In this document: piece by piece, positions 5,452 through 64,000 of the stretch
Layout of the letters: each line of letters opens with the position of its first letter
How positions within the stretch are numbered: position 1 is the first letter of the stretch
Assembly: GCA_026874595.1 (NCBI GenBank)
Contig: CM049309.1
Location: 55,712,079 to 55,776,078 of the forward strand
Source of the DNA: Sipunculus nudus
Taxonomy: Eukaryota; Annelida; Sipuncula; Golfingiida; Sipunculidae
DNA length: 64,000 nucleotides
Direction of reading: 5' to 3'
Position numbers and translations under genes: made by a program
Notes under the pieces: generated by a model
Told to the model about the DNA's origin: nothing
The model's input: only the letters and a program-made list of their open reading frames with translations
Database searches by the model: none

Positions 5452-5503
<52 letters not shown>

Positions 5504-24286: not shown

Positions 24287-24351
24287 ATATTAAATAGCCC
24301 TCATACATCGACGTTCATCTGTCTTTCAGAACACATTCCTTATCAGTGAAG

Positions 24352-24368
24352 ATGGTGAATCGGCCGAC
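24352..24368 (+). CDS. Copy B exon 1: start codon
   Basis: MVNRP plus two bases. Chosen because it joins in frame to a basic stretch and hydrophobic anchor. Donor GTGAGT is consensus. Confidence 0.7.
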
Positions 24369-25073
24369 GTGAGTTGCGATTTTACAATTAGCATCGCCCA
24401 TGCATTTAATTATTTTACTTTTCAGTCAAACTAAATACTATGTACAGTTTGGAAAGACGCTTTACGTCAAATTCTTTTATGGGAAACCAGAAAATTCCGT
24501 GTGCTTTGTTGCATATTGGAACTTATGAATTAAGTGCTTAAAATACTTTGACCGAAATGTCCATTTTCAGGATTAAAAATGAAAAAAATATAAAAGTGTG
24601 TTGGTCACATGTTGTGAAGATTACAGAATGATCAGTGGGGAACCCAATATAAGACAGACGTAGAGTGTGTATGCTTCCAATCGTACACAGCTACACGCGT
24701 GTGTATGTCCAAACGAACATCATGGACAATATAAAAACCGTTACCAGTGGTTAGTTCATATGACCAGGGCCAGTGTAAATTCAGATTCTGTATGCTTCAC
24801 CAACTTTTCTATTTCACTCTACAACAGGTTCGTCATAGATCAGCTCGCCGCAAGAAAATTGTTGTCGTATTTACAGTAGCCACATTAGCGGTGAGTTTTC
24901 AAACCTATAGAATGACAGTATGACAGATAAGCGGGGGTGACTTACTCAGTTGCACGTCTCATGTATGGATTTTGAATCTGACATGTTGCTTCTATTATTG
25001 CGAATTTGTCGGCCAACTAAAGGGGCTGAAATTTTTATTAAATGATGATGATGATGATAACAATAATAATAAT

Positions 25074-25151
<78 letters not shown>

Positions 25152-25610
25152 TTAATATTCTTTTGGTGAAACTGCCAGTTTCCTAGGTTCCATCAAGGGT
25201 GTATGCTTATATTGGGAGGGAAATTATCAGTCGTGGACGGGACAGGGTGTGCAGGTGGACTACTTGGTATACAAACTATAATTGTATGTTCAGGTAATAG
25301 CCCGGATGTTAGCAAACATTATAAATAACATCGTCTTCTATTTAAAAAATATAACCTGCAGATATTGTGCGTGGCACTTATCGTCGGACTCGCTCTGTGC
25401 TTTGGTTCATCACCTGTTGATGGTGCAGATTTTGCTGCGGCCAGTGCTAAAACAACAGCTCCGAAAAATACCAGATGTCGTACCAAGCAGGAACTACAGC
25501 CGGGCAATATGACGTCACCACGGAAGCGATGGATGGACACTGATTGTAAAAAACCAAGCGTCTGTCCTGAAGGGTCTGTTCCATTTAAATAAACTGCTTT
25601 CTTGTATATA

Positions 25611-25662
<52 letters not shown>

Positions 25663-28600: not shown

Positions 28601-31600
28601 AACAGAAGGCAGGTGCCGCTACCGCTCTGATCTGTGCGTCACCCTTCCGCCAGATGTCGTTTCGTCTCAAGACGAACCTCTACTGTTTGGGCACTGTGGG
28701 ACGGCAGGGACTACTTGTCTCAACTGTCAAACTTCAAAATCATTTTTTTTACATTTCAAGGAAACACTTTCTGTTCAAATTTCACATGCACATGCTTACA
28801 AAAAATACTTATTCCTTAAAGTTCTTATCACAAAAACACCCAATGTTCATGTAATTTGTTCCAACATACTTGAAAAGAACTACATCGTTCTCTTCACCAC
28901 TTTTATACCTACGCCGCTGATGTATTAAGAAGCCCCGGTGCAATATGGGTGTCAGATTTTTTCTCCAACAGTCACTAAACAGCAGAGTCGTACTCTAATG
29001 ATTCCGAGTCTGCGCAGTGTGAGCTGTGCGTATGCGCACCATTTTTGAACAATGAAACCAGAAAAACGGATGTCTCGTTTTGCTTGTCCAAAGAATCCCT
29101 TCACGCGAGGTCAAACTCTCCAACAGACGCTAGGTGTCGCTACCGTAAACCAATAGACAGTTATTTCCTGCCAGGTATCCAACCCCTCTCCAATTTAGCA
29201 GTTATTCTTCCTGTGTGTGTTTATAACTTGCTTCCACAAAAGGCAGAATTTGATGTTGTTAAATATATATACATTTAAGCATTAGAACCCTACGAACAAT
29301 GTATGGTTATTTACTGACCGAGCTGAGTCATTTGAGGGCTTCCCCGGTCTTGACCAATATTGAAAATCATTCTGAATTCAGCCTGTTGGAGAGGGCAACG
29401 ACATCTGAACCGTCACAAAGTGTATATATCGTAGACCTACATTTATTTACAGATTCAGCCACAGTTTTCTCCTATTCATTTCTCTAGAGTGGTTTCCTAA
29501 CATAAATCATGTTAAGTAATTACTGACTTTCTTTACGATTCAGTTCTCCTCCTCTCCTGCTGATCTCCCTGGATGGTTTCAGAGCAGATTACTTGTTGAG
29601 GAACTTCACGCCAACCATTAAGAGACTGAGCGAGTGTGGTGTCCATGCCAAGCACATGAGGTCTATTTTCCCCAGCAATACTTTCCCCAACCACTATTCG
29701 ATAGTTACGGTAAGAATGTAAACATGTATATATAAAACAAATTCTTAAACTATTTGTAACAGTGGGCTATGTACATTCTAGGACACAAGTGAAAACATCT
29801 CAATGTTGCCAATGAACTATATACTTGTACAAAGCAAGATTCTTGCTTATCAATCATGTTTATCAAAATATATAGAATACATTTAAAAATACAATAATCT
29901 CTGAACGTCACTTGTAAGTAACCAAATGAAAAACACCAATATTTCATCAACACTGAACGCCACCAGTATAAAATACGTCAACATCTCTGTAATCCATGTA
30001 CCTTGAACTTCACCGGCATGTATCAACATAAAAAACGCCAACATGTAATCACCAGTAAGTATAGAAACTTACAAATGTCCAGTATGGAGCCTAGACAGCT
30101 ATGGACGTCAATTTTTTTTCTGTTTGTTCAGTATTTGAAAATAATGGTTATGAAGAACACTTCAGTTATAGTCGCATGGGATCACACTCAAACCATTTAT
30201 ATTAAGACCAACCAAAAGCAATGCGTTAACGTTATAAAAACTTTCAGAACTTATATGTCGATAATTAATAATTAATTAATGTTTCTAATATCAATAATTT
30301 CATATACCATTATATCATGCCTCGTTTTTGTTCTAGGTGTATGCCATTTGCTTTCAATTTACAGGGTTTGTATGCAGAATCTCACGGCGTCATTGACAAC
30401 AGAATGTACGACAGAGAGAGGAAAGAATACTTCAGCCTCGCCAGTAAAACTAAATTTGACAGTCACTGGTATGGTGGGGAGCCGGTGAGTTAATTAAACA
30501 TGGCATATAAGCATACTTTACGGGAGCAACATCTGATTTACGATGTAACCTTGCGCGCAAGCATGTACTTTGATAAATGTGGTATTACCCATGTAAGAAC
30601 TATTTACGTTTGTAACGCCTCAACGTCAGTTTCGATTCCCGCGTGACCTCAGCTGATGCAGTAAAACCATATCGCACATACAGAAATCAATCTTGAGCCG
30701 GATTTTTTCCGACCTATTTATTGTAAGCGACCGGACAATCTAAAAGTCTCGCCGGCCATCGAGTTCTCGCGCACCTACCGATTTTCCATGCGGATCACTA
30801 TATTTTCCCGATCATTTTGGGCACTTTTGATTTCGTCATCAGGATTGTTATTGGCGTCAGGAATCATGAAAAGAAGGAAAAGCAGGTAGTAAATCAGCCT
30901 ATTTTTGGGGTTCCGTCATTACATCTTCCAAATTCACCGTCCGGATAATAATCGGCCGAAAAACCCTTGACATTGTCAAGGATATTTGCAGCCGATTTTG
31001 CCAGGTTAGGTGAATAAAATAAATGACCGAGAGCACCCTCTCATCTACCGGCTGGAAAAAATCGGTAGAATTTAGGCCGGCTTTCGTCGGACATCCTGCT
31101 CGGGCGACATTTGTCCTGTTCCATGACAGAGTCGGGAAACGTTTCAGTTATGCACCCTTTATACGGAAAATCATTTGCAGCACGACACTTAATAAGGTCG
31201 CAGTTAATGAAGGAAAAATTTTAAAAATTTTAACCGTTCAGGCCGAATAACTTCCTGTGATGGAAATTCCAATTATTAGACGATACCGTAAAAATACGAT
31301 AAAAAACAGTTTTATAAAAAAAGGTGTCAGAGCATTAAAAAAAACTATGATCTTACTGTCCAGTTAAGGTAATTTACCTGGAAATACCCGGCTCAACTGG
31401 AAAGAATTCTTCAACCATTCTGTACAGACCACTTACAGCAACTTCTTGGTGGTCATATTTGCAAACGTAAGTGTACATCTTTATCTTGTATATATGATTT
31501 TCTGTTTTGTAATTTAACTTACAATTTAACTGCTTCTTTGTATGCCTATGGGCCTGAATATAAATAGGCGTAAGGCTGTACGTGTTACTGTTAGGATGTT

Positions 31601-31693
31601 TCTATGAATTCATTTTAGCACATTATGCGGAGATCCGTGCATTGTTCAAATTATTAAAATTATGAAACTAATCATCATGGTATGAATAATGCG

Positions 31694-31740
<47 letters not shown>

Positions 31741-32156: not shown

Positions 32157-32208
<52 letters not shown>

Positions 32209-35200
32209 AGTAAGATTTTGAGTTAGACACAAATCACATGATTTCAGATATTTTTATTATCAGTTAATTAATTAGCATGGTTACTTAAAACTAGGTACAG
32301 CAATTCATTTCTCTCTCGGTTTCTTTATTTTCAGGCACAGCCCACTATGATACAGACATGCAGATGCATGTGATGGTAGATATCCACGCAGTTTGAAAGG
32401 TATATTCACATTGCAGTTATACTCGTGTTCATTGTCTCACTTCTTACTGCGTGTCTGACACTTGTGTTGGAATATATATATATATAAATTTCTAATCTTA
32501 ATAAATCCATAAAATATAAGGTTAACGTTAACTGTTTTAGCGCTTTTCATAATTAAATCCATTAAACGTTTGCATTTTATTTCCTGAGTATATGTATTAT
32601 TTTCAGGTGATACATGGATACAACCCCAGACGGGGACCGAAAATGACCAGAACGAATAAAATACAGATAAGAAAAGCCGAAATCTGTCAAGAAATCTGTC
32701 AGAGCTTGCTTAGATAGAATAGATGCATTGCATAAAAGTCGCCGTGCACCTTGAATAATTCTGGATATGATACAAACTGCTGTTAGAAAGACTTGTACTC
32801 CGACATGAGAATCCGGGCCAGGAAAAAAGGATATTCACAGAACAATGAAATTTATGCATATGTAGATGCATAATGTGTGGCAAGGATATATTTTCTTTTT
32901 TCGAAATTCATTTTTTTTTTATGAAAAATGCACTTAGACCGAAAAATTGTATTCCTTACAAAGATGCTCCTGTATATATGTGAGCGTTGCTCTTACTAGA
33001 AACAACAAAAATATAAATTGTATTCTGACTTACTACCTTACCAAGGCTTTAACATCAATACATGTATTTAAAACTGTTATCATGTTTCATATAACAAAAT
33101 CTATGAGATCTGTGTTGATTATTATATATATGTGTGTGTGTTGTGTGTGTGTACGAGTAAACGAGTGAATAACAGAATATGTTGTATTTGTAAGAGCATT
33201 CCTCTTTTATTCAACCCAATATTCACTTTAAGTAATACACTGCCCCTGTAATTTAAATAAACTGTGACGTCTAAATTGCATTTGGAATGTACGACATAAC
33301 CGCATAAATTACGGTAAATAATCAGTGGAAAAATTTACGGTATATTACCGTTATTTTTACGGTCAATGTTATTCACATTTACGGTCATCGTTAAATTTAC
33401 GGTATTTCTTTGGCAGCCATAATTGACGGTATTTTACGGTAAATTTTAAGGTCTGTGTCTGAGAGTGATATATGAGAGTATGGATGTTAAGTAATATCTT
33501 CATATGACGCAGTATGTATATATGTTTTTCGGGTGCAATTACAGACATGTCAAGCGTATTATCTTATCACTTCACGCTGAGATGACATCTTATCCCCCCA
33601 ACCGGGAAAAGTAGACACTGCCAAGATAAGATAAGATTTCCCTTGTTATGGAGTGCTTTTATCTTTTTAGCAAAATATTTCTGTTAATATCATTCTTTTC
33701 CCTGATCATATGAAATTTTTATCGAAACATACAAAAAGGTAAAAAAAAAATCGCCCGCCCGCACCGATTTCTGAAAAAAAGTGCCTGACAACCATACCTT
33801 TTTTTGGCCTTAGAGTTATTACAGGTCATGATATCGATTTTTGTGCATTGACTTGTTTATTATTCCTCTGCTTTAGATATGGCTGACGGCAATGAAACAA
33901 GGGAAGAGAGCAGCTACGTTTTTCTGGCCCGGAAGTGACGTGCCCATTAAAGGTCAGCAGGAAAATTATAATTTAATATTAAGTACACGCCACGTGTAAA
34001 ATGTGACATCATTTGAAGAGGTATTATAGACATGCAAGGAGTAGGTCAAATACGGCATAAATGTATCTAGTTATATCACGGTATAATGCCTAAAGATCAT
34101 AGTCAGCTTTTCCCTAAAACTGTGATTTTGTATACTATTCACACACGAAAAGCATTTCGTTTCTTATTTTATATAGCTATTCAACTCTCTAATTTTCTAC
34201 TAGATAATTTTAACCAAGCTCTTGATCATGTGAAATATTAAGTAAATAAACAATATTGACGAATTGCAAAGAAAATATAAATAAATGCATTTTGAATTTT
34301 ACAAGGTTGAATATTTCTTGCAGGAGAATACCCGGATATATGTTATACATATGACAGGTAAGTGGTTAATGATCTTTATAAATAGTTAAGCAAAAACATA
34401 TTGACGCCTATAAGTTTTCCATCGAAACGGCGATAGTCAGCTGATTAAAAATTAAGTTTTGACTTCAACACCTCTGTCTGCAGTGCATGCTGTAGTGTAA
34501 ATATATATAAAATATCCCCGATGATAGTATCAGGCGCTCAGCAATGATATCAGATTAGGCAAAAAAAAAAAGGTTTGATTCTCAGGCACTTTTTTCAGGC
34601 ATCAGTGCGCGAGGGCGATATTTTTACCTTTTTTTGTATGTTTCGATAAAAATGTCGCATGATAAGGGAAAAGCATGAAAATATAAAAGAATTATTTTGC
34701 TTAACAGGTAAATGCACTGCATTACAAAGGGAATCTTATTAAAATTGGATTATATTATGGCTTTGAAAGAATAATCCGAGCGGCTGGAGCTCAAAATTGT
34801 ATCAAGTTTCTATTGAAAATCAAAACCTTACCTGAGAACCTTACCTAAATTTTATGGCCTTACCTGGTTCTTTTTTTTTGTAGGAGTATTTCATTCAGGG
34901 ATCGTGTTTCTCAGGTCCTGGGCTGGTTGGATTTACCGAAAGACGAGCGCCCCGATATTATGACTCTGTACTTTAATGAACCAGACAAAACGGGACACAA
35001 TTACGGTCCGTATGGTGATAAGGTAGGTGTAGACATACATACGTGCATACATACATACATACATTACATACACATAAAATAAAAATAATAAAAATAATAA
35101 TATCATAATATTATGATATTATTATTTTTATCATTATTATGCCCCCCCCCCCCCCCGGGGAAAATTTGTTGATTTAGGTGCCATCGTCTGTCGTCAGTCG

Positions 35201-36334
35201 TCGTCTTTAGGATATCTTGCGAACGCGATTACTATGAAGGGCTGAATATTTTTCTTCAACATTTTTAACACTCATTGTTTCAACCGAAATCTTGGACGAG
35301 TTTGAATTCCGGTGACCTTTACTTTCATCTTCAAGGTTAAATCTGCCGAAATGTAAAATTCTTTTGAGCCCCATAACTTTTGAAGCGCTTCACATTTTCC
35401 CTCAGATTTGTACACAAATTTTTCCTACCAAGTTCTTCGCCGAGTTTGAAAACCGGTTACCTTGACCATGATCATCAAGGTCAAATCAGCTGAATTATAG
35501 TTATTCCTTTGTGAACGTGAGAAGTTTTGAAGAGCTGTATATTTTCCTCCAAAATTTAAAAAACTGGTGATCATGGCCTTCATCTTTAAAGTCAAATCTG
35601 CCGAAATGTAAAATTTTTGGTAACCCCATATATTTTGAAACGCTTCACATTTCTCACCATGTCTTTATTGGTACAACCTATATGCAATGGGGGAGATATA
35701 TGTTTTTGCAAGTGCGAAAACAAGCCATTCTAATTTTTATTTGACGACTGAATGATTATTGTTAAAACCCAGCACATTTATTGTTGCCATGGATACAGAG
35801 ATATTTATGTCACACACCTGTCATTGCTTCCATGCAGGAGCTTAATTTTCTTGGTAAACTTGTAAACATACCATACATGGAAGATTATAAAAGGCTTACG
35901 CATTACATTAATATATTTAGACTGCTTTGACACACATATACATACATGTACATTCCACAAAGAGTTATACAAATATGGAACTGGCAGTTGTACTCTGTCT
36001 AATTGCAGTTACAGCAGAAGCTTGTGGAAGTTGACGGAATGCTGGAGTTATTACTGGATGGACTTGTCAGGCGGAATCTGGATAAATGTGTCAACATCAT
36101 CATTGTGGCTGATCATGGTAATGTAGCATCCAGTCGCTCTCTATTATAATCGTTTATTAAGAGTTTCTCTCATATATCACTTGTGGTATTGCTCCTTCAC
36201 CAAGGAATAAATCTGATATTTTCATTTTATAATTCATTGAAGTTATCTGTTATAAAAATATCCAAATTCCTTTTATATGATAGTATGATATTAATGAAAT
36301 AAAATCGTTTATGAGAGGGAGGTCAAAACTGAAA

Positions 36335-36397
<63 letters not shown>

Positions 36398-40489: not shown

Positions 40490-40526
<37 letters not shown>

Positions 40527-52500: not shown

Positions 52501-55500
52501 CTCAACAGAGCACTGGGATTTCCAAAACCTTACATAAATAGTCAGCTAGGAACATATTGATTCAATATCAATCCTGTAACGGGTTCCAAAAATTATTTGA
52601 CATATTTATACAAACGCGTTAACAATGAGTCCTTACAACAACAACAACACGCATTAACAGTATACTTAGAGGACAATGCAGCTGCATTCTTAGTCGGCGA
52701 CACTAAAAAATGCTGTTATGGATATATCTGGATTTTTTGGGGATATCTTTGCGATTATACGTGTATGAATAACATTGTGATATAACTGGCTAAGTGAAAA
52801 TATGCAGAGATTTAGAAGACAGTTGTTTGAACTAAGTCCTTATGGTTTTGTAATAGGTCGATGACGCCCTGACTGAGATAGACAGTAGTATTAAGAGACT
52901 GATGGACGGCTTGTACCGACGGGGGACACATAACTGTGTCAACATCATCCTCGTCTCCGATCACGGTGAGTTCGCTTCAGCAATCAGTGGCTCGGTAAGT
53001 ATTTGCTGGTACGTAGAGATATAATCCAGATAGTAGCTCATATATAAAATTAAAGATTCATTACTTGTGAATATATTGGTAATTACTGACATCTCGTTTG
53101 TCATAACTTTTACGCGTTTTCATTTTCCATTTGAAGAATTTCAAATTTGTATTTAAAAAATTTTGAGACATACTGATGCACTACTGCCCTCGGTAAAATG
53201 TGTGCAACCTTACAGGAATGAATGACATCAACTGCAAGGAGAGACAATCCGGGGTCCGAGAGTACATTAACGAGAAAAACATGCATGTATGGACAGAGTC
53301 AGCGGGTAGAATCTCGAACAAGTACCGCAGTGACAGGTACAATGGACCCTTCTACCCAGTCGACCGGGAGGACCAAGGTATATAGTTACTTATAGTTAAG
53401 ACGAACTTCGGTAAAAGGGACCCCATTGAAACCCAAACCACAATTAAACAATTGAAGGTTTCCTGAATTACATCTGGTTGTTAGCGAACCTGTGAGCTTA
53501 TGCGATGGCGCAGGGTCGTCCATCCACCAATGTCCGTACGTTAACCCATGCTATCTCAAAAATCGTTGGAACTACCATCACCAAATTTTATGAAAAAAAA
53601 AATCAGTCATCTTAAAAACTATATGGGATTTTGCTTATTTTTTCTGTCTCCATTTACTTAGATTTTATAAGGTAAAAGTAAAAAAAAAAATCTTCTTCTC
53701 CGAAAATGTCCAACCGAATTGTTCAATATTTCACAGAAATAATCTCTGAAATCATCTCTTTCAAATTTGTTCGAATGGTTCCAGTTCGTTGAATAGATTG
53801 GTTTCATTGATTTTTGGTAGAGTATAGTTAGGTGGAGTTGGTCTTATGGCTAATAGTAAGCCTATTTCAAACTGAGGGCTGCAATAGTCTTCTTCTGATA
53901 AAACTGTTGTTTCAACATTGCACAAAAATGATTCTTAGGAGGCCTTTGTTCAAGTTTACTGAAATAATTTTTTTGCAAAATTACTAGACCTTTAACAATG
54001 AAAGGACATTATCTTTTATTATTCTAAACTTTTGGTAAAAAAATCTTGTGAATTTGTCAGCTTGAAAAAAAAGTATTGTAGCCAAAGTCTTTCAGTATGT
54101 TGAAACAGATTTACCAGCAGGGCAAGATTGTGTCTGTATCAGTAAATAGCATGGCACACTGCCAACTATTTCAGAATTGGCAAAAGGCCAAAGGTCAGTC
54201 TAGATCTATTTATAGCTTTGGTAGACTGTCATCTGTATCGAAATATGCAACAAGTCAAGAGTTTACACAGTGCAGCCAGGTACAGGTCAAAAGTTCACTC
54301 AGTGCAGCCAAGTGAAGGTCAAGAGTTTGCTCAGTGCAATAGCTATAGCTAGCAATTTGATCCGGTCAACTCGGGGAACTGCCTTTCTCACCTAAGCCTG
54401 GTCAGCCCAATGCACCTAACACAACAGAAGGTTGATGTATTGGCCTGATATTTTGACCTGACTGCATCTTTAATGGCTTTCTCGTACACAAGAATGGTGT
54501 CGCCACCTACAATGACCCTTTGCACAGTGTACCTGCTTATTTCTCAGAAGGGATTTGATTTATCAGCCTGAAATTGTGAATATTTATACATATCGGATAG
54601 CTTCGTCGTATACAAGACTGGTGGCGCAACCTACAATAATTGTAGCAAAGTGTATGTCTCTGCTTTTTTTAGGATGAATTTGATATATCAGCCTGAAATT
54701 GATAGCTTTGTCAAATGCAAGACACGTGGCGCCACTTACAATATTTTTGCAGTGTATGCTCCTGCTTATTCCTCAGAAGTGATTTGACATAAAAAAAACC
54801 TGAAATTATACAAGTCTATACATCTCTAACAGTTTTGTTGTATACAAGACTTGTGGCGCCACCTACAATTGTGTCATACAGCTGAGCACATAGCCGAAGA
54901 GTGGTTTGAAGTATCTGAAATGTTGCATGGCCGTACATCTTTGATGGCTTCCTCCTACACTAGACTTGTGGTGCCTTGTGTGCACCAGTACCAGTATTTC
55001 TGCAGTGACGTTTATGTAATTGGTGCATGTACTCGGGTTCAAATGTCTAGTGCTTGCATTATACCTATACATATCACATTTGTACGTGAAAAATTACGGT
55101 CCAGCATGGAAGCATTATACCCGATGTATTTCCCATTGCACAGGTTCGCATTAGGCCTGTAGGCCTTGTTTAAATCATGCTTTCGTAAGCGTGAATACTG
55201 GCATTAGTACTTAATGGATTTTAGGAACAGTCTATGCATGACAACTATAGTGAGGCTTAATATATTTTAATTTTCTTAGAGCTATCATGGTGGTTAGGTG
55301 TAGTCCTGCATTTGAGCATCTTCAGCTCCTAAATTAATTATAAAACAAAGTATCCAGAACGCCAATATTTTTTAAACGCCGTCTTTATATTATTGGATAT
55401 AAAATTATGTACTTTAATGTTTTGTTGTGTTATGTTATTGTTGTTCCGCAGTGCCTATTGAAAAGTTTATTGAGAAGCTTGAATGTAAAATTGAGGCTGT

Positions 55501-58500
55501 GAAAGTGTTCGAGAAATCGATGTTCCCAAAGAGACACCACTACGCCAACAGCCACCGAATTGATGACGTCATTCTTGACGTGGACGACCGATGGTTGGTC
55601 ACAGAGTGAGTCATGTGGTTTATGATATACATACATATCATGCCTATCTTGAAATACATGTACGAATAAAGAATAACGCATAAAAGAAGAAAATAAGGAG
55701 TGTTTTTATGACTGAAACACAGATGTTTCTTTTACTGAATTTAATACAGATTAGGCACGTTTACGTATAGAAACGTATAACCTATAATCCTACAGTAACT
55801 GTTGAGAATTTCAACAGAAGTATGATTTGATTACACATATTACAAACCAGATAACGAACATTCGTCAGAGACCAGTTATCACTAGACTCGGTAACCGCAT
55901 CTGAGTTAATTATTTTTAAAACATTTGCACTTTAATGTACTTCTTTACATTGGAGCCTATCTCCTTTTGGATGGGTTTGTAAAATGATATATACATGTGT
56001 TTCAATGAAAGACGCAAGAAGGACCGGTATTTGTGTGGATTGAAAGGTATGCATGGCAACGACGAAACACTTCATACAATGAAGGTAAATATTGATCACT
56101 ATATAAACATTTATCATTAAAAGTGATACACAGATACACGTACACGACATACTTATGTGCATATACACGCATACACAAACATTCACTTGTGATTATACAA
56201 TAAAATGGTCTTTATATATAATTGACCTATCCACCACAGCCCATATGCTCCGCCCTTTTAACCTAATTATTATAATGAACCCCCAAAATAATCCCACACA
56301 GATGGTCTTCCGTGCCCATTGTTACGAGAGCTGTTTACAAGACAATTATGACGATGACGTTTGACGTCGCTTTGACTGATGTCATCAACCAGAATCACTG
56401 TTCTACATTGTCGAATATATCGCAGTCATTGTGAAATGAGTTGCAATATTTTGGATTATTTGTCTCATACGAATTACGTGCCAGGTAAAACATTATTATT
56501 CACTTGGTAGTCGGAGGAATCGCTCCTGCAACCTTTGGCATAGAACTTTTTATACTGTCTCTTTTTTGTATAAAAAAATTTCCCGGATAACATTCCGACA
56601 CTGGTACTGGTACAGACTACATGTGTTCTGTTTGGCAGAGCTCTGCCAAATTTTGCAAATGTTGTGCTTGTCAGATGATTTGCGGTTTACCAGGCCACGG
56701 TCATCTGATTGGTTGGACGTAAGTCCAATGCTTATGATTATTCATTGAATGAATATGCGATTAAGGTCACATAGGTTTTCAAACAGAAACGCTCATGTAG
56801 TTCTCATGGTATTTTCCTTTATTTGACCGATGAAATATAGGAATATCATAAGTACTGGAGTCTTGATATATCACTTATCTTGCTGTAATGGTGTTAGTCC
56901 TGTATGCATAATTGGAATATATCAAGTTTTTGTAATAAAATGAATATAGAATTGAATTATGTTACAATGTGTTTCGTTGGAAATGGCATTACGGTATTAC
57001 ACAGCTATTCAGTTTGCTCTCCTTGTGTAGTGCAACGTGCTTATAACATGAGTTTCAGACTTCTTTCAGTTCAAAGTTTTTATTTCTCCTTTACAGGCAA
57101 TTTTCATGGCACACGGTCCAGATTTTGCCAAAGAAAAAGGAATTGAGGAATTCGAAAACATCGAACTTTACAACATAATGGCCCGTGAGTGAACTATAAC
57201 CCATTAGAGAATGATATAGTGAGCTTAATATCCAAATCGGAATGACGGCTGAAGATAATTGTCGCCACATGACTGGGTAAAATTAGACCATGCCTATTCT
57301 GTATCTTTTATGCATATTGGTATATAAGTCTGGCTCATTTCTCGTCTTACGAGATCACGTGAGAGAGCGCCAGTCCACAGTTCCCATCAGGCATGCGCTT
57401 CCGGTTCCCATAAGAGCATACCAAATGTTCGTGCCACTGATTCTGAAAACACTGCCGCATCAAACAACGTGGGCAATAATGCAAAATACCAAGGCCTGGC
57501 CAGCAGTACTACTCCAAGTAATGGTGAAGTGTCCACTTCAGCCAACCCTGCCATGCTGGATTCACAGATTCACAGCATACAAGGCCTCATACTTTCTCTG
57601 ATGAGAAAGAAGAAACAGAAGCATTTGATCAGGATGCAGAACCGGATCAGCTTCTGGATCCAGGTACTCAAGACTGAAGTCATTTATGATTTCTCTAATC
57701 AAGCAGGAACAGCTTGGCACGGAAGTCACGCCTAAGCTTGCTGACTTGATTAACAATTAGCTGGCATCTGGATCCTCAGATCAAGTGAAGGAAATGCAAA
57801 ATTCCATCCTAACCTCTGCTTACCGTACGGGCTTAACTACTACTTAGGTGTACAAAGAAATGTGGACTAGACAAAGAAATTATACAAAACTGAGTGATGG
57901 CAAAATGAAAAAAAGTGCAGTAAAGAATCGTAAAAGGGATGTAGCCTCTGATCACTGTTGCTGACTCCCTCCTTATTGTGAAGCAAGGTAAGCTACCTAT
58001 CAATGACTTAGACCTGGGATCCCTAGTTGAAACCTAACGGACAGTCTGGCTATATTTGGTCATCAAAGCATAAGCTTAACCTACGAAAAGGAGAGCTCCT
58101 TCGTGGAAACCTGCATGGAAAATATAAAGTAAAATGTGTTAGGCAGACGTGCCCATTACTGACATGTTATTCGGGGACAACCTTTTACAGTCCATCCAGA
58201 AAATTCAGGACTCCAACAATGTTGGAAGACGGCTAGTAGGACCGACCGCTGAGTGAACAACCAAATTTCATGAAAAAGGTTCAGCAAACCTCAGTCGTTA
58301 AGGCAAAACACCTACTAGCAAGAATTTTAAGATCAGACGGCCAGGTTAGTCTTTAAGCTGAACAAGTCGGGCCACAATAGACTATACAGCAAGTAAAAGA
58401 CGACACTCAAGTAACTTCACAGGCAAGTAGGATTTCAAACACTTAACTCACTAATAAACGATACAGACTCTTCAAAATTGGCGGAAGACAAAGGCATTTC

Positions 58501-61500: not shown

Positions 61501-64000
61501 ATTTGATAAAAATTTAAATACAGTCATGATGCATGAGTTTAGGTTGCTCTATAAAACTTAAACCGACTTATGATTTCCATGCATATACCTAATCGTGTGT
61601 ATAACAAATTGATCTTGTTATTACTGATTTCTGAAGATGTTTTGGGTGTCCCGCCGGCGCCCAACAACGGAACAGAGGGAGCTCTGTACTCCATTCTGAG
61701 AAACCCTCCGTCACTTCCGGTTATAGACACTACAGGCAGGTACAGCATCTGTAGCTACAGAGGGCCGACTGCGCATGACAACATCTGTCCGTGCAATCTG
61801 GTAAGTTTACCTGTTTCTTCTGTGTAATTTTCATTCGTTTGTTCACCAGTTCAGAGATTTACATAAGAACCATATGTTTCTACAATACGCTTTAAAAACA
61901 CTTTCAATATATTGCATGCAGAAAACAATAGCAGCTCTGAATGAGAGACTGAACAGAACAGAGATCCAGAACAGTCAAAGTTTATCTGACCATTTGCCTC
62001 ACGGGATGCCCGTCCTGAACAACAACGACACGGTCTGTATCCTGTACCATGACGACTACGTCTCAGCCTACAGCCATCAACGCAAGATGGCGCTCTGGTC
62101 AGCCTTCACCATCGATAGAAATCGGGTGAGAATTTCTTCGTTTGCCAGTCATGTTATTTATGGTTATCTTCTAATACACGTCACGATGTTTGTTGTCAAT
62201 AACTCGACAACACAGGAATAAATCTTTTTATTTTAATAGCTGAAATGAGATGTATGACAAATGTTTTGTTTACTAATATGTTTCAACTTCCATTTCCCTT
62301 GATAAACATTAATGTAGTCTGAGGTATATATTTAACAAGATTATACGTTTGATCTTGGGCCTGGTGCCTCCATAGATTTCCGCCATAGATATATTATGCC
62401 GTCAGTTAGATCCGACCCTTGCGCCACTGCGGCCCAATGTTTTACAAAGTCTAGAAGCCTTGTGTTTATTAATTATACTACCGGTATGTTTATGTTTTAA
62501 TACTTTTACAGTTCTCCGACATTGAGATTCCAAACTGCGTTAGAATTGACCCCCGGGTGGACCAGGTTGACCAGACGACCTGCGATAATTACACGTCCAT
62601 GGAAGATCAGATGATCGCCAGAGTCAACCTGTTCCCGCCAAAATTCAGCTCCTCAAACAAGACGGTACACGACGCCATGATCCTCACCAACAGCGTCCCC
62701 ATGTACAACGGAACAGGTCGGAGACAAATAAAATATATTTAAAGGTGCCACATCACCTACCTTTTGAAAAATAATTATGTGATATCTGGCTTCCTCTGTG
62801 TATATATTAATGATCTTAGGGTTTTTTTTTTTGTGAAAAAAATCTTATTCGGCCTTCGTGAAGGATGTGTGAACTTGTTTACCATAAACATGTTTGTTAA
62901 CACAGTAATGTTGACAAATGGGAAATATATGTTACCTAAGGTGGTAGGCCGCATATATGCGGAGGTAGAAAGGTCATTCGCAATTTGCAAAGCTCTGGCT
63001 TATCTGACTTGCTGCCAGATGTCCTTGTTGTATTTGTTTTGATTATTTGAGCGGGCCCCACATAAACATGGTGATAAAAACAAAACAAGCAGCCTGTGTG
63101 CGATGATATCCACGTTTCATTGCCTATTTTTAAGAAAGCTCCAAGGGATTGACTTTAATTTATAAAGTCAGATAGGTGATTGGGCCCCGGAAAACAATTG
63201 TTATAATATCGTTAATTGCCAGATTATTTCACTATGTTTATTTACGTATAACCTCGAGATGATTTTTTATTGTAGGTCAGACCTGGAGACATCAGTCCCT
63301 TGTCATAACGTCATGTGTATATGTATTCATTTAAATCACTGTAATTAGGAATTTTACCTCTAAATGATAAAGATTAACTCTAACTGAATCTCTTCATTTG
63401 CAATAATAAAAAGGGTTCATTGTTTCATTGACTGTTGTTATCATCTGTAAATTCCAATTTCCAGTGATTTGGGATCACGTGATTACAACTGTGACCGAAT
63501 GGGCACGTGCCTACGAACGGCTTCACGTGATAATGGGGCCGGCGTTTGATTCCGACTTTGATGGGCACTGGGACCCAGTCAGTTTATTACAGAGGTATGA
63601 CAAGTGATCATAGACTTAACTATAATAAACGAAACGTGTAGAAACGTGTGATCAGCAGATGACTGATGTGTTTAGGCTTAGTACAGAGACCAAGCTTAAT
63701 GTCTTTAAGGATATAAATCGTCATTGATGGTATTTTTATGCTAACTGCTCAACAGAGATAACATAATGGTGCCTACCATCGGATTATGCACATTGATTTT
63801 CAAATACATGTTATCACAATGTGTTTAATTTTGCTATATACATTGTAAATATAAATATTTCAACGCCCTTTTTTTTGCTTTATCCCCGTCCACGTGTTTC
63901 TCTTCCATTTGTGTTGTGACGTCACTTGTATTTGCTTTATTGGTGTTTTTACAGAGAACATATAAACAACACGGTGAACATCCCCTCCCACTACTACCTT
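24352..64000 (+). CDS. Two-module type II membrane ENPP: anchor-stem-[PDE+nuclease-like]-linker-[PDE+nuclease-like] (copy B, 3' partial, 35 exons in window)
   Basis: 35 exons join without a frame break into 4374 nt, 1458 codons. Order: basic tail (residues 1-12), signal anchor about 13-38, stem to CPEG (91-94), PDE module 1 (95-462), nuclease-like domain 1 (463 to about 815), linker [18 protein letters not shown] (818-835), PDE module 2 (836-1209), nuclease-like domain 2 (1210 onward, cut by the window). The metal/nucleophile set is complete twice: D104, T140, D260, H264, D307, H308, H422 and D845, T881, D1001, H1005, D1048, H1049, H1169. Somatomedin-B domains, usual in ENPP1-3, are absent. 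The active sites should be extracellular (type II anchor). By analogy with copy A about 83 more residues remain; a third module cannot be excluded. The fusion rests on phase-perfect splice sites and needs transcript support. Confidence 0.87.
24839..24890 (+). CDS. Copy B exon 2: basic tail and start of anchor
   Basis: Residues 6-23, [18 protein letters not shown]. The acceptor is the TAG at 24836-24838. The upstream CAG (ends 24827) would shift the frame into a TAG stop. Positive residues before the hydrophobic run predict N-in, C-out. Confidence 0.75.
25042..25151. repeat. (AAT)n microsatellite with short (GAT)n start
   Basis: About 110 bp of trinucleotide repeat between exons 2 and 3. Confidence 0.95.
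25362..25573 (+). CDS. Copy B exon 3: end of anchor and stem
   Basis: Residues 24-93, beginning [15 protein letters not shown], then an Ala/Thr-rich stem and [14 protein letters not shown]. The donor is GG|GTCTGT, weak. It is fixed by the phase-2 join (GG+T) to exon 4. Retention of the intron would stop after five further residues. Confidence 0.8.
25604..25659. repeat. (TA)n microsatellite
   Basis: Lies 30 bases after the exon 3 donor. Confidence 0.95.
25660..29543. other. Long copy B intron 3
   Basis: 3.9 kb of unique-looking DNA. A poly-C run is near 27099-27114. The 144-codon minus frame at 27921-28355 and other frames match nothing I recognise. No exon encoding a somatomedin-B-like Cys pattern was found here. 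Confidence 0.5.
29544..29709 (+). CDS. Copy B exon 4: first PDE exon of module 1
   Basis: Residues 95-149. [17 protein letters not shown] carries zinc ligand D104. [13 protein letters not shown] carries nucleophile T140. 166 nt, acceptor ATTCAG, donor GTAAGA. Confidence 0.93.
30365..30484 (+). CDS. Copy B exon 5
   Basis: Residues 150-189, [16 protein letters not shown] onward. N161 matches the conserved active-site Asn. Donor GTGAGT. Confidence 0.93.
31701..31736. repeat. (TG)n microsatellite
   Basis: 36-bp TG run. Confidence 0.95.
32159..32206. repeat. (TA)n microsatellite
   Basis: 48-bp TA run. Confidence 0.95.
33296..33455. repeat. Cluster of TTTACGGTA motifs in both orientations
   Basis: At least eight ACGGTA/ACGGTC/TACCGT motifs in 160 bp, several as TTACGGTAAAT palindromes. 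Resembles a MITE-like or palindromic satellite fragment; family not identified. Confidence 0.55.
33631..33800 (+). repeat. Left arm of an inverted repeat flanking exons 6-7
   Basis: The reverse complement matches 34571-34739 over about 170 bases. Shared blocks include TGTATGTTTCGATAAAAAT and the GTGCCTGA/TCAGGCAC end. Confidence 0.85.
33877..33952 (+). CDS. Copy B exon 6
   Basis: Residues 190-214, containing [13 protein letters not shown], the canonical ENPP1/3 nucleotide-pocket motif. 76 nt. Flanked with exon 7 by an inverted repeat. Confidence 0.92.
34324..34357 (+). CDS. Copy B exon 7 (34-nt microexon)
   Basis: Residues 215-225, [11 protein letters not shown]. Acceptor TTGCAG, donor GTAAGT. 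Confidence 0.88.
34571..34739 (-). repeat. Right arm of the inverted repeat flanking exons 6-7
   Basis: Inverted partner of 33631-33800. The two arms enclose exons 6 and 7 and intron 6. Family unknown; probably two opposite insertions of one short element. Confidence 0.85.
34884..35022 (+). CDS. Copy B exon 8
   Basis: Residues 226-272. [20 protein letters not shown] and [11 protein letters not shown] are strongly ENPP1/3-like. D260 and H264 are zinc ligands. Confidence 0.93.
35141..35710. repeat. Molluscan-type dispersed repeat with internal duplication
   Basis: Begins with a poly-C run, then TCGTCTGTCGTCAGTCGTCG. It holds two or three related units built around 'CAAGGTCAAATC(T/A)GC(C/T)GAA' and 'TTTTGAA(G/A)CGCTTCACATTT', ending GGGGGAGATATATG. 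No coding capacity. Confidence 0.6.
36009..36117 (+). CDS. Copy B exon 9
   Basis: Residues 273-308, [18 protein letters not shown] to NIIIVADH. D307 and H308 bind zinc. A second CAG six bases in is a possible alternative acceptor. The 109-nt length shared with other modules favours 36009. Confidence 0.9.
36338..36394. repeat. (TA)n microsatellite
   Basis: 57-bp TA run between exons 9 and 10. Confidence 0.95.
36422..36478 (+). repeat. Tandem TATTGTAGGT acceptor-like units before exon 10
   Basis: ATATTGTAGGT, ATATTGTAGAT, TATTGTAGGT and TGTTGTAGGT follow one another. Each ends in an AG that could serve as an acceptor. Confidence 0.65.
36479..36625 (+). CDS. Copy B exon 10
   Basis: Residues 309-357, [17 protein letters not shown] onward. 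147 nt against 162 in the module 2 homologues. Several TTGTAG acceptor-like repeats precede it; the last is used. Confidence 0.85.
37028..37181 (+). CDS. Copy B exon 11
   Basis: Residues 358-408, [12 protein letters not shown] to KPKWQIS. Contains [16 protein letters not shown]. 154 nt as in the other modules. Confidence 0.93.
37182..40131. other. Copy B intron 11
   Basis: 2.95 kb of AT-rich DNA. No exon, RT or transposase motif recognised. Confidence 0.5.
40132..40201 (+). CDS. Copy B exon 12
   Basis: Residues 409-432. H422 in KGGGHGYD is the last zinc ligand. 70 nt against 73 in module 2. Confidence 0.9.
40501..40526. repeat. (GA)n microsatellite
   Basis: Short GA run in intron 12. Confidence 0.9.
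40719..40806 (+). CDS. Copy B exon 13
   Basis: Residues 433-461, [19 protein letters not shown] and NIEIYNFMA. End of PDE module 1. 88 nt. Its 3' edge seeds a decayed repeat array in the next intron. Confidence 0.92.
40807..41640 (+). repeat. Degenerate array seeded by the exon 13 / intron junction
   Basis: Exon 13 ends ATTGAGATCTACAATTTTAT then GGCTGGTACG. The intron carries ten or more loose copies such as 'GGTATTGAGACCTACAGTAT', 'TTATGGCTGGTACATGAGAT' and 'CACTATGGCTGGTAGGTGAG' at about 60-80 bp spacing. The unit contains both the last codons and the donor. Confidence 0.75.
41758..41948 (+). CDS. Copy B exon 14
   Basis: Residues 462-525, [17 protein letters not shown] to CTCPTRQ, the Cys-bearing connector between PDE and nuclease-like domains. 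191 nt, longer than the 164 nt in module 2. Confidence 0.9.
42155..42370 (+). CDS. Copy B exon 15
   Basis: Residues 526-597. [15 protein letters not shown] and [18 protein letters not shown] mark the nuclease-like domain. Acceptor GGCAG, donor GTAAGA. Confidence 0.88.
42371..42625 (+). repeat. Decayed tandem copies of the exon 15 3' edge
   Basis: Two units (about 42436-42530 and 42548-42625) repeat the exon end 'GGCTACAGCCACGAGTACCG' through 'GACGGAGAGGTAAG' and the intron 'AGTGACGTCACG'. The second keeps TTGACGGAGAGGTAAGAAA, an intact-looking donor. Confidence 0.75.
42923..43079 (+). CDS. Copy B exon 16
   Basis: Residues 598-649, [19 protein letters not shown] to VPGFLFPP. Together with exon 17 it matches the single exon m of module 2, so an intron was gained or lost here. 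Confidence 0.9.
43369..43449 (+). CDS. Copy B exon 17
   Basis: Residues 650-676, [20 protein letters not shown] and MYKGFAE. Acceptor TTTCAG. Confidence 0.9.
43858..43987 (+). CDS. Copy B exon 18: calcium-loop exon
   Basis: Residues 677-719. [10 protein letters not shown] at 704-713 has the DxDxDG pattern. 130 nt as in exons n and 34. Confidence 0.92.
43991..44080 (+). repeat. Decayed copy of exon 18 3' half
   Basis: 'GTGACCGCTGGTCCTCTGGT' then TTGACGCTGAC and GATATCAG follow exon positions about 43897-43985, placed immediately after the real donor. Confidence 0.75.
44473..44611 (+). CDS. Copy B exon 19
   Basis: Residues 720-766, containing [14 protein letters not shown] and [12 protein letters not shown]. 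Acceptor TTCCAG, donor GTAAAC. Confidence 0.92.
44740..45430 (+). repeat. tRNA-derived SINE cluster (three related units)
   Basis: Units near 44740-44840, 45050-45140 and 45300-45420. The first has an A-box-like TAGTGAAGCGG (44766-44776) and a perfect B box GGTTCGAATCC (44807-44817). The others keep GGGTTCGATTT and GGGTTCGAATC. Units 1 and 3 share GCGTTCCTACTGGCCTT. Not functional tRNA genes: no acceptor stem is seen. Confidence 0.65.
45999..46204 (+). CDS. Copy B exon 20: end of module 1 and read-through linker
   Basis: Residues 767-834. [15 protein letters not shown] matches the terminal exon of copy A. Instead of stopping after LW it continues [20 protein letters not shown] and PA, then donor GTGAGT in phase 2. 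No stop occurs before the donor in this frame. Confidence 0.88.
46489..46654 (+). CDS. Copy B exon 21: first PDE exon of module 2
   Basis: Residues 836-890. [17 protein letters not shown] has D845; [13 protein letters not shown] has T881. A leading base completes the split Gly codon of CPAG. 166 nt, acceptor ATTCAG, donor GTGAGT. Very close to exon a of copy A. Confidence 0.92.
47490..47609 (+). CDS. Copy B exon 22
   Basis: Residues 891-930, [20 protein letters not shown] onward. The conserved Asn is kept, though the preceding D is A. Donor GTGCGT. Confidence 0.92.
47906..47981 (+). CDS. Copy B exon 23
   Basis: Residues 931-955, [20 protein letters not shown] onward. The WPGS motif is kept, unlike copy A. 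Donor GTGAGC. Confidence 0.92.
48240..48540 (+). repeat. Minisatellite, unit about 40 bp, upstream part
   Basis: Seven or so units of 'GACATTTTGTATTCCTCTTT' plus TTGTATTGCTCCA. The same array resumes at about 50890 beyond a LINE insertion. Confidence 0.85.
48545..50885 (+). mobile_element. LINE fragment (L1/Tx1-like reverse transcriptase), decayed
   Basis: In plus frames with stops and shifts: a CRYIGENTG block near 48635, [20 protein letters not shown] at about 48720-48780, [13 protein letters not shown] near 49000 (the ADD catalytic box) and KTEVLWLGC near 49185. These follow the RT order of non-LTR elements. The 3' end has TATGTATGTATA tracts. A 77-bp segment is directly repeated at 49013-49171. 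Confidence 0.75.
50890..51230 (+). repeat. Minisatellite, downstream part, supplying the exon 24 acceptor
   Basis: About nine units of 'AGACATTTTGTATTCCTCTT' plus TTTGTATTGCTCT. The last unit reads GACATTTTGTATTCCTCTAG and directly forms the pyrimidine tract and AG of exon 24. Confidence 0.85.
51231..51264 (+). CDS. Copy B exon 24 (34-nt microexon)
   Basis: Residues 956-966, [11 protein letters not shown]. Its acceptor CCTCTAG is the last unit of a minisatellite. Donor GTATGT. Confidence 0.88.
52102..52240 (+). CDS. Copy B exon 25
   Basis: Residues 967-1013, [18 protein letters not shown] onward. D1001 and H1005 lie in DLAGHYGGP. Donor GTCAGT. Confidence 0.92.
52857..52965 (+). CDS. Copy B exon 26
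   Basis: Residues 1014-1049, [20 protein letters not shown] to NIILVSDH. D1048 and H1049 bind zinc. Donor GTGAGT. Confidence 0.93.
53216..53377 (+). CDS. Copy B exon 27
   Basis: Residues 1050-1103, [18 protein letters not shown] to PVDREDQ. 162 nt as in copy A exon g. Confidence 0.93.
53378..54420. other. Copy B intron 27, left part
   Basis: No exon seen. Loose repeats of GGTCAAGAGTTTACTCAGTG occur near 54190-54330. Confidence 0.45.
54440..54985 (+). repeat. Tandem repeat, unit about 120 bp
   Basis: Five units share 'ACAAGACTGGTGGCGCCACC' then TACAAT, CAGTGTATG.TCCTGCTTATT and ATTTGAT..ATCAGCCTGAAATT. Internal to intron 27. No frame kept. Confidence 0.75.
55452..55605 (+). CDS. Copy B exon 28
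   Basis: Residues 1104-1154, [20 protein letters not shown] to VDDRWLVT. 154 nt, donor GTGAGT. Confidence 0.93.
56012..56084 (+). CDS. Copy B exon 29
   Basis: Residues 1155-1179, [19 protein letters not shown] onward. H1169 is the last zinc ligand. Acceptor GAAAG is weak; the 73-nt length and phase fix it. Confidence 0.85.
57097..57184 (+). CDS. Copy B exon 30
   Basis: Residues 1180-1208, [19 protein letters not shown] to LYNIMA. 88 nt, donor GTGAGT. The following intron holds the DIRS-type element. Confidence 0.93.
57341..57374 (+). repeat. Left inverted terminal repeat of the DIRS-type element
   Basis: Holds CTCGTCTTACGAGATCACGT and GAGAGAGCGCCAGT. Inverted matches lie at 61094-61118 and 61252-61274. 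Confidence 0.85.
57390..57735 (+). pseudogene. Gag-like region of the DIRS-type element
   Basis: Contains [17 protein letters not shown] followed by a lysine-rich stretch, in two overlapping frames. Position before RT is the main support. Confidence 0.5.
58478..59178 (+). pseudogene. Reverse transcriptase of the DIRS-type element, catalytic box damaged
   Basis: [37 protein letters not shown] and [16 protein letters not shown] follow DIRS-type RT. The YxDD box reads YKND, so one catalytic Asp is lost. A stop near 58692 separates the N-terminal part. Confidence 0.82.
59313..59950 (+). pseudogene. RNase H region of the DIRS-type element
   Basis: [20 protein letters not shown] and KPGWGVVL, then after frame breaks [17 protein letters not shown] near 59825-59880 and [19 protein letters not shown] near 59945-60002. 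These are typical of DIRS RNase H. No methyltransferase domain was recognised after it. Confidence 0.75.
60270..61091 (+). pseudogene. Tyrosine recombinase of the DIRS-type element
   Basis: Three overlapping frames. [11 protein letters not shown] near 60595-60630 holds the first catalytic Arg; [17 protein letters not shown] near 60920-60970 holds the HxxR box. The final catalytic Tyr was not seen. Confidence 0.8.
61094..61196 (+). repeat. Internal complementary region of the DIRS-type element
   Basis: First 25 bases complement the left end of the element; the next about 75 complement its right end (TAAACGAGAGTTACCTGTAA against the end at 61283-61345). Confidence 0.75.
61637..61800 (+). CDS. 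Copy B exon 31
   Basis: Residues 1209-1263, [18 protein letters not shown] to CPCNL. 164 nt, acceptor TGAAG, donor GTAAGT. Confidence 0.92.
61922..62125 (+). CDS. Copy B exon 32
   Basis: Residues 1264-1331, nuclease-like domain start with [17 protein letters not shown] and [16 protein letters not shown]. 204 nt. Confidence 0.92.
62372..62420 (+). repeat. Decayed copy of the exon 33 acceptor region
   Basis: ATAGATTTCCGCCATAGATA then CCGTCAGTTAGATCCGACCC parallels the exon 33/exon m start. The same kind of relic precedes copy A exon m. Confidence 0.55.
62512..62716 (+). CDS. Copy B exon 33
   Basis: Residues 1332-1399, [17 protein letters not shown] to NSVPMYNGT. 205 nt as in copy A exon m. 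Confidence 0.92.
62717..63464. other. Copy B intron 33
   Basis: No exon recognised. A 92-codon open frame here overlaps AT-rich sequence and has no known match. Confidence 0.5.
63465..63594 (+). CDS. Copy B exon 34: calcium-loop exon
   Basis: Residues 1400-1442. [10 protein letters not shown] at 1427-1436 has the DxDxDG pattern. 130 nt. Confidence 0.92.
63955..64000 (+). CDS. Copy B exon 35, cut by the window edge
   Basis: Residues 1443-1458, [16 protein letters not shown], matching copy A exon o. By homology about 102 more bases of this exon and a final exon lie outside. Confidence 0.9.

What the first reader, a model, noticed from the sequence alone, without database searches (positions are those of the whole stretch)
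24352..64000. A single gene encoding two complete ENPP modules in tandem
The 35 exons join without a frame break. Exon 20 of module 1 has no stop and ends in a consensus phase-2 donor. Exon 21, the first catalytic exon of module 2, accepts that phase exactly. Both modules keep all seven metal/nucleophile residues and the nuclease-like calcium loop. Known ENPPs carry one catalytic and one nuclease-like domain; I know of no described two-module form. A membrane-held double phosphodiesterase could process nucleotides in series or carry two specificities (inference).
Basis: partly seen in the sequence, partly recalled or inferred. Interest (0 to 1): 0.88.

Follow-up and report, generated by a model that had tools for sequence, protein, structure and literature searches.

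The report
Two-headed ENPP phosphodiesterase gene cluster
A worm-like animal genome carries a tandem cluster of genes that each fuse two complete nucleotide-cutting ENPP enzymes into one predicted membrane-anchored protein, part of a many-headed enzyme group that sits mostly unnamed in databases and that we did not find described in print.

Summary
A 36-exon gene (35 exons touch the window; the last lies beyond it) encodes two full ENPP modules in one open frame, joined by the exon 20/21 splice (46204/46489, phase 2). It is not a chance pairing: five tandem copies share the same 206-nt exon 20, GTGAGT donor and 166-nt exon 21, both modules are under purifying selection (dN/dS 0.13-0.30), and the junction linker repeats the one before module 1. 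Corrections: the ATG at 24352 is probably not the start (that exon is better read as internal, phase 0; the first exon was not found), and the host groups with annelids, not molluscs. Relatives already lie in databases: two-module proteins in annelids and, unexpectedly, three-module proteins in bivalves, a chiton and an octopus, mostly 'uncharacterized'. My searches of an open-access library found no paper describing them. Best reading: an SMB-less, predicted type II membrane ENPP with two nucleotide-type active sites. The adenine-contact Asp is kept in five of five module 1 copies but varies in module 2 (E, D, D, E, G), so specificities may differ. Activity, a transcript in this species and serial processing are untested. 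New variant of a known kind.

The parts
24330..24368 (+). exon 1 of the model (read as internal coding exon, phase 0, [13 protein letters not shown], cytosolic N-terminus); a further upstream first exon is implied but not found
   Evidence: acceptor TTTCAG, donor GTGAGT, same 39-nt exon in genes 2 and 4
24828..24890 (+). exon 2: [21 protein letters not shown], start of the predicted membrane anchor
25362..25573 (+). exon 3: rest of membrane segment, stalk, linker W-M-D-T-D-C...C-P-E-G before module 1; no SMB domain found
29544..29709 (+). exon 4: module 1 catalytic start (SLDGF metal Asp, TFPNHY Thr nucleophile)
30365..30484 (+). exon 5, module 1 catalytic
33877..33952 (+). exon 6, module 1 (WPGSD, adenine-contact Asp kept)
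34324..34357 (+). exon 7, module 1
34884..35022 (+). exon 8, module 1 (EPDKTGH metal ligands)
36009..36117 (+). exon 9, module 1 (ADH metal ligands)
36479..36631 (+). exon 10, module 1
37028..37187 (+). exon 11, module 1 (RRHHF metal His)
40132..40201 (+). exon 12, module 1
40719..40806 (+). exon 13, module 1
41758..41948 (+). exon 14, module 1
42155..42370 (+). exon 15, module 1 nuclease-like
42923..43079 (+). exon 16, module 1 nuclease-like
43369..43449 (+). exon 17, module 1 nuclease-like
43858..43987 (+). exon 18, module 1 nuclease-like, calcium loop DHDADGLRD
44473..44611 (+). exon 19, module 1 nuclease-like
45999..46204 (+). exon 20: end of module 1 plus inter-module linker [18 protein letters not shown]; no stop; phase-2 donor GTGAGT
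   Evidence: same 206 nt in 5 of 5 paralogues
46205..46488 (+). intron 20 (284 nt); no AATAAA/ATTAAA; if retained, the next codon is TGA
46489..46654 (+). exon 21: module 2 catalytic start (SIDGF, TFPNHY)
   Evidence: same 166 nt in 5 of 5 paralogues
47490..47609 (+). exon 22, module 2
47906..47981 (+). exon 23, module 2 (WPGSG, adenine-contact Asp replaced by Gly)
51231..51264 (+). exon 24, module 2
52102..52240 (+). exon 25, module 2 (SVDLAGH metal ligands)
52857..52965 (+). exon 26, module 2 (SDH metal ligands)
53216..53377 (+). exon 27, module 2
55452..55605 (+). exon 28, module 2 (KRHHY metal His)
56012..56084 (+). exon 29, module 2
57097..57184 (+). exon 30, module 2
61637..61800 (+). 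exon 31, module 2
61922..62125 (+). exon 32, module 2 nuclease-like
62512..62716 (+). exon 33, module 2 nuclease-like
63465..63594 (+). exon 34, module 2 nuclease-like, calcium loop DSDFDGHWD
63955..64000 (+). exon 35 (cut by the window end; runs to 64102), module 2 nuclease-like; exon 36 (66408-66557, then TAA) lies outside the window in locus L029
497..13391 (+). module 2 (exons 21-36) of the next gene upstream (gene 4), ending LWTKS-TAA with AATAAA nearby; same layout

Best explanation
The window holds one gene of a tandem array of at least five. It encodes a predicted type II membrane protein: short cytosolic tail, one membrane anchor, then two complete ENPP modules (phosphodiesterase plus nuclease-like domain) in series, each preceded by the same kind of short W...C...CP linker. 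It arose by an old duplication of the whole module, before this lineage and the annelid Dimorphilus split. Shown from sequence: one continuous frame, the conserved splice joining the modules, intact metal sites, nucleophile and calcium loops in both modules, and purifying selection on both. Inferred: both modules hydrolyse extracellular nucleotides or dinucleotides to 5'-monophosphates by the usual two-metal, threonine-nucleophile ENPP mechanism; module 1 keeps the adenine contact of ENPP1 and module 2 has drifted, so the two heads probably differ in base preference.
For: Continuous 36-exon frame and phase-2 junction. Five of five tandem copies keep exon 20 (206 nt, no stop, GTGAGT) and exon 21 (166 nt). 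Exon 20 is 95% identical between this gene and genes 1, 2 and 4, while its intron 20 gives no blastn match to those of genes 4 or 1, the two compared with it, so conservation stops at the donor. Linker pS above pN in 10 of 10 gene pairs (not independent), pooled 0.16 against 0.048. dN/dS 0.13-0.21 in module 1 and 0.15-0.30 in module 2, 10 pairs each. Pfam PF01663 E 2.9e-99 and 3.2e-91, PF01223 E 7e-11 and 1.5e-10. Nearest solved structure of both by sequence is snake venom phosphodiesterase 5gz4 (E 1.5e-175, 5.8e-148). Active-site table. Database relatives cross the same kind of junction: two-module contigs P0021 (1542 aa on a 5,017-base contig) and P0022 (1571 aa on 5,152), too short to hold comparable introns and so apparently spliced RNA; Dimorphilus P0028; Owenia P0027/P0029, identical over 706 residues across the junction.
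Against: No transcript of this species was available. Intron retention would end the protein at once (next codon TGA in 5 of 5 copies); genes 1-4 have poly(A)-like hexamers in intron 20; and in genes 1, 3 and 4 (not 2 or 5) the short open stretch before exon 21 holds an in-frame Met, so single-module isoforms are possible. Introns 20 of genes 1, 2 and 3 partly match one another. The true first exon is missing. High exon 20 identity may partly reflect gene conversion. Gene 3 looks damaged: two exons not found in the stretch modelled and module 2 nucleophile Thr to Ser. Some relatives have broken modules (Octopus modules 1 and 2, contig P0023 modules 1 and 2, Dreissena module 2), so presence of a module does not prove activity.
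Confidence: 0.87

Rival explanations
1. Two neighbouring single-module genes, with the apparent junction a by-product of gene prediction.
For: Domain hits on C12 look like two adjacent separate ENPP genes in this genome (hits only). Poly(A)-like hexamers occur in intron 20 of genes 1-4, and an in-frame Met precedes exon 21 in genes 1, 3 and 4.
Against: Exon 20 has no stop and continues into a conserved linker in 5 of 5 copies; the module 2 end exon has a TAA soon after the homologous place. In this gene intron 20 is only 284 nt, with no Met in the open stretch before exon 21 and no poly(A) hexamer. Transcript-like contigs and annelid proteins span the junction.
Confidence: 0.05
2. One locus making both a long two-head protein and a short one-head protein by retention of, or polyadenylation in, intron 20; the short form is the main product.
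For: Phase-2 GTGAGT gives an immediate TGA in 5 of 5 copies; AATAAA/ATTAAA in intron 20 in 4 of 5 copies.
Against: TGA follows automatically from GTGAGT in phase 2; such hexamers are common in AT-rich introns; none in this gene's intron; module 2 is under purifying selection in all 10 gene pairs.
Confidence: 0.1
3. The copies are decaying or artefactual products of tandem duplication or misassembly.
For: Gene 3 lacks two exons in its model and has a 15.4-kb-spaced direct duplication, 99.7% identical over 3.9 kb.
Against: Genes 1, 2, 4 and 5 have no stop in either module and dN/dS well below 1; the architecture recurs in other annelid proteins.
Confidence: 0.03
4. Only one head is catalytic in practice; the other is a structural or regulatory pseudo-enzyme.
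For: In Octopus two of three modules and in Dreissena one of three have lost catalytic residues.
Against: In this array 9 of 10 modules keep all seven residues, under purifying selection.
Confidence: 0.15

Closest known systems
ENPP1 / ENPP3 and snake venom phosphodiesterase (5gz4)
   Same: Catalytic domain, two-metal site, Thr nucleophile, nuclease-like domain with calcium loop; ENPP1 is a type II transmembrane protein (PMC6891441, abstract and passages); 5gz4 is the best PDB sequence match of both modules
   Different: ENPP1 has one catalytic and one nuclease-like domain and two SMB domains (PMC6891441 passage); here two modules and no SMB domain at E up to 0.1
Three-module ENPP proteins of molluscs, uncharacterised (e.g. 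Mytilus LOC143067274, Crassostrea virginica LOC111119482, Liolophura LOC135470602)
   Same: Tandem modules, the same W...C...CP-type linker before each module, N-terminal anchor in the complete-looking ones shown
   Different: Three modules; 38, 37 and 39% identical to the query for these three; relation of individual modules unresolved
Two-module annelid proteins Dimorphilus DgyrCDS1695 and Owenia P0027/P0029; unnamed contigs P0021/P0022
   Same: Two modules in the same order; module 1 groups with module 1 and module 2 with module 2, except Owenia module 2
   Different: 34-43% identity; known only as predictions here, no function found
ENPP5-like proteins of the vampire snail Colubraria (PMC4460706, passages read)
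   Same: Invertebrate ENPP
   Different: 441 residues with a signal peptide, so room for one catalytic domain only (my inference)

Membership tests
ENPP (NPP) family | PF01663 phosphodiesterase domain | tested here: met
   Both modules, E 2.9e-99 and 3.2e-91
ENPP (NPP) family | Six metal ligands and Thr nucleophile | tested here: met
   7 of 7 in both modules of this gene; 9 of 10 modules in the array
ENPP (NPP) family | Hydrolysis of nucleotide pyrophosphate or phosphodiester bonds | not testable with these tools
   Needs expressed protein
ENPP1-3 subgroup | Nuclease-like domain with EF-hand-like calcium loop | tested here: met
   PF01223 matches in both modules; four loop Asp in both modules
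ENPP1-3 subgroup | Two N-terminal somatomedin B domains (PF01033) | tested here: not met
   No PF01033 match at E up to 0.1 in the N-terminal 850 aa; only the part before the anchor is incomplete
ENPP1-3 subgroup | One catalytic plus one nuclease-like domain per chain | tested here: not met
   Two of each
ENPP1-3 subgroup | Type II membrane anchor (ENPP1, ENPP3) or secretion (ENPP2); the ENPP2/3 part recalled | tested here: inconclusive
   One strong hydrophobic segment after RRKK (mean hydropathy 3.13); start codon exon not found, cleavage not tested
Multi-module ENPPs (unnamed group seen here) | Tandem modules, each preceded by a W...C...CP-type linker | tested here: met
   Linkers in exon 3 and exon 20 resemble those in the mollusc and annelid proteins

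The most novel reading that the evidence does not exclude
The protein is a dedicated two-step dinucleotide degrader of invertebrate immunity or digestion: one head opens a cyclic or linear dinucleotide (for example 2'3'-cGAMP or Ap4A) and the neighbouring head, with its altered base contact, cuts the released intermediate, with the array expanded as the ligand repertoire grew. Mollusc three-headed forms would be the same idea extended.
Probability: 0.1. Interest if true: 0.75.

Novelty: new variant of a known kind. Interest (0 to 1): 0.55.

Why it matters
ENPP1 controls extracellular ATP, pyrophosphate and cGAMP and is described as one catalytic plus one nuclease-like domain (PMC6891441, passages). 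A widespread animal group with two or three such units in one predicted membrane-bound chain, mostly unnamed in databases, is a natural experiment in tethering an enzyme to itself. It makes a concrete question testable: do tandem heads differ in substrate or pass products on? A passage in PMC7148315 reports a zebra mussel plasma ENPP with a nuclease domain raised 4.6-fold after poly I:C, so a defence role is worth testing; whether that protein is the multi-module one was not checked.

Tried and rejected
Disfavoured, not excluded: the start codon at 24352 (an earlier thought that gene 4 has no ATG in that exon was wrong: it lacks one at the same place but has others in that frame). Rejected: mollusc host. 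Led nowhere: the first coding exon upstream of 24330 (repeat-like matches and the known exon, none pursued as an exon). Led nowhere: naming the species by its mitochondrial COX1; the whole-genome search did not complete in 12 tries, so the annelid assignment rests on the ENPP trees alone. Structure prediction was not run: the tool takes up to 1200 aa, less than a two-module chain, and sequence matches already settle the fold; an alignment was made for that and not used. NCBIfam gave only matches below its cut-offs, to alkaline phosphatase superfamily members and the like. Rfam gave none in the window. A DNA-level test of the linker is blunted because exons 4, 20, 35 and 36 look gene-converted.

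Rows dropped or changed before counting: the aligner's output for genes 1-4 held small spurious exons and poor N-terminal exons; I kept only exons 4-36, left out the spurious ones, trimmed one gene 3 exon by 3 nt and wrote N for gene 3 exons 10 and 34. Gene 3 was left out of the second tree and the exon identity table. A few paralogue donors are GC. The second tree used 42 sequences, chosen partly from the 74 of the first. Of 120 proteins listed (1309 at E up to 1e-20; only the 7988 candidates sharing most words were scored) I examined P0001-P0033 for module number: 15 of 33 show three near-full modules, 8 more show three with at least one split or cut, 3 show two full modules, the other 7 are partial or mixed.

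Full report
What was checked. The window is part of a 1.43-Gb genome (contig C4). A genome-wide look for the phosphodiesterase domain showed its first exon in pairs along C4:55.48-55.77 Mb, five pairs 11-18 kb apart, plus one inverted pair at 72.35-72.37 Mb. I fetched most of the array, found conserved exons by protein-level comparison between copies, and built spliced models with a dynamic-programming aligner guided first by a database relative and then by the window gene.

The window gene. The model has 36 exons, of which 35 touch the window; the last exon and stop codon lie about 2.4-2.6 kb beyond it. It encodes 1557 residues in one frame plus a missing first exon. Exon 20 (45999-46204) ends the first nuclease-like domain, runs on without a stop into a linker, and stops at a phase-2 GTGAGT donor. 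Exon 21 (46489-46654) starts the second catalytic domain in that phase. The start probably is not. The exon around 24352 is 24330-24368 with its own acceptor; in phase 0 it reads [13 protein letters not shown], and the same 39-nt exon in genes 2 and 4 reads TTFLVGEDGKKEV and TKFLVDEDGRTDV. The next exon has a well-placed phase-0 acceptor in genes 5, 1 and 4, where it was found. N-termini of relatives (for example MSSSKYDFVLQDSDGE...) suggest that only a few residues and the Met are missing.

Why the junction is real. First, five of five tandem copies have exon 20 of 206 nt with GTGAGT in phase 2 and exon 21 of 166 nt. Second, the linker [18 protein letters not shown] before module 2 repeats the pattern of [15 protein letters not shown] before module 1; both are followed by a phase-2 intron and PLLLxSxDGF, and a W...C...CP-type linker stands before the modules of the mollusc and annelid relatives. 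Third, exon 20 is 95% identical between this gene and genes 1, 2 and 4, whereas its intron 20 has no blastn match to intron 20 of genes 4 or 1, the two compared with it; introns 20 of genes 1, 2 and 3 do partly match one another. Fourth, between copies the linker has pS above pN in 10 of 10 pairs (pooled 0.16 and 0.048; the pairs are not independent). Fifth, this intron is only 284 nt and holds no poly(A) hexamer. Against it: retaining the intron gives TGA at once in 5 of 5 copies, introns of genes 1-4 contain poly(A)-like hexamers, and genes 1, 3 and 4 have an in-frame Met in the short open stretch before exon 21, so short isoforms cannot be excluded.

The modules. Each has the phosphodiesterase and nuclease-like domains. 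Both have snake venom phosphodiesterase as the nearest solved structure by sequence. Aligned by residue, both modules of this gene keep the seven metal/nucleophile residues and the four Asp of the calcium loop. In the array, 9 of 10 modules keep all seven; gene 3 module 2 has Ser for Thr. A review of ENPP1 (PMC6891441, passages read) names Thr238 as nucleophile, Asp780/782/784/788 as calcium ligands, and Trp304 and Asp308 as water-mediated contacts to adenine. Counting from the Thr, Trp304 is kept in all ten modules, and Asp308 is Asp in five of five module 1 copies but Glu, Asp, Asp, Glu and Gly in module 2 of genes 1 to 5. The same place varies in some modules outside the array too (Glu in 7 rows and Gly in 1 of that table, other letters in degenerate modules), so drift there is not unique to this gene. 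The other nucleotide-pocket labels in that table (F239, N259, K277, Y322) are recalled, not from a call. Both modules evolve under constraint: dN/dS 0.13-0.21 (module 1) and 0.15-0.30 (module 2) over 10 gene pairs. The two modules of one gene are 40-42% identical to each other.

Relatives. The protein search returned 1309 proteins at E up to 1e-20; I examined the first 33 for module number. Fifteen of 33 carry three near-full modules: Mytilus, Saccostrea, Ostrea, Crassostrea, Potamilus, Mercenaria, Liolophura, Ruditapes, Mactra, Dreissena, Octopus and four unnamed contigs. Eight more carry three with at least one split or cut. Three carry two full modules (P0021, P0022 and Dimorphilus P0028). 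Owenia P0027 and P0029 are identical over 706 residues across the junction, so together they show a two-module gene. P0021 and P0022 lie on contigs of about 5 kb that hold the whole frame, so they look like spliced RNA; I do not know their species or what the source tag 'lgn' stands for. The trees put window module 1 with the first modules of Owenia (bootstrap 87), Dimorphilus and the two contigs (100), and window module 2 with Ridgeia and the second modules of Dimorphilus and the contigs (100); a FastTree run agrees for Dimorphilus and the contigs. Dimorphilus sits on long branches. Owenia's second module falls elsewhere with low support (69), and the link of these modules to individual mollusc modules is unresolved. 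I therefore take the host to be an annelid; the species could not be named because the whole-genome search did not complete.

How it most likely works. Shown: sequence, gene structure, intact sites, selection. Inferred: a predicted type II membrane protein whose two heads face outward and hydrolyse nucleotides to 5'-monophosphates by the usual ENPP mechanism. The variable adenine contact makes different base preferences of the two heads likely but unproven. Passing of a product from head to head is speculation. Octopus modules 1 and 2, contig P0023 modules 1 and 2 and Dreissena module 2 have lost catalytic residues, so in some lineages a head may be structural.

What is known. Eight searches of the open-access library listed no paper whose title or abstract start describes a chain with more than one ENPP module; one search matched 12,047 papers, of which 10 were listed, so it says little. 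I read passages of five papers (PMC4460706, PMC7148315, PMC6891441, PMC11677397, PMC8204762), which mention none; the rest I saw only as listings. Subscription journals and preprints are not held. The group is thus deposited but, as far as these searches go, undescribed. I rate it a new variant of a known kind.

Noticed in passing
C4:55455001-55655000 and 55697001-55786000 (L009-L031); window 497-13391: Tandem array of at least five two-module ENPP genes; gene 4's second module fills the left end of the window. A sixth, inverted pair at C4:72.35-72.37 Mb was seen only as domain hits.
   Followed up: partly
Window exons 4 (29544-29709), 20 (45999-46204), 35 and 36: These exons are 90-97% identical in DNA to genes 1, 2 and 4 while the other exons range from 50 to 90%; looks like patchy gene conversion between array members.
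   Followed up: partly
C4:55635658-55639571 and 55651083-55655000 (L027, L028): Gene 3 holds a direct duplication, spaced 15.4 kb, of part of module 2, 99.7% identical over 3.9 kb, with a possible third copy at 55668605 by domain hit; its model also lacks two exons and has Ser for the Thr nucleophile. Recent duplication or assembly error.
   Followed up: partly
P0026 (Octopus), P0023, P0019 (Dreissena): Three-module relatives in which one or two modules have lost metal or nucleophile residues: multi-headed ENPPs with dead heads.
   Followed up: no
P0031 (Priapulus caudatus), residues 127-1001: A predicted priapulid protein holds one module (in pieces) plus the start of a second behind a W...C...CPAGF linker, so the multi-module form may be older than annelids and molluscs.
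   Followed up: no
window 20404-21923, minus strand: Retrotransposon remnant between genes 4 and 5 (reverse transcriptase and integrase matches in separate frames).
   Followed up: no
C6:71636489-71637280 and C6:71672864-71673658 (L001, L002): Two further phosphodiesterase places where most of the domain (positions 1-253 and 1-256 of 342) matches in one uninterrupted frame, unlike the many small exons of the array.
   Followed up: no
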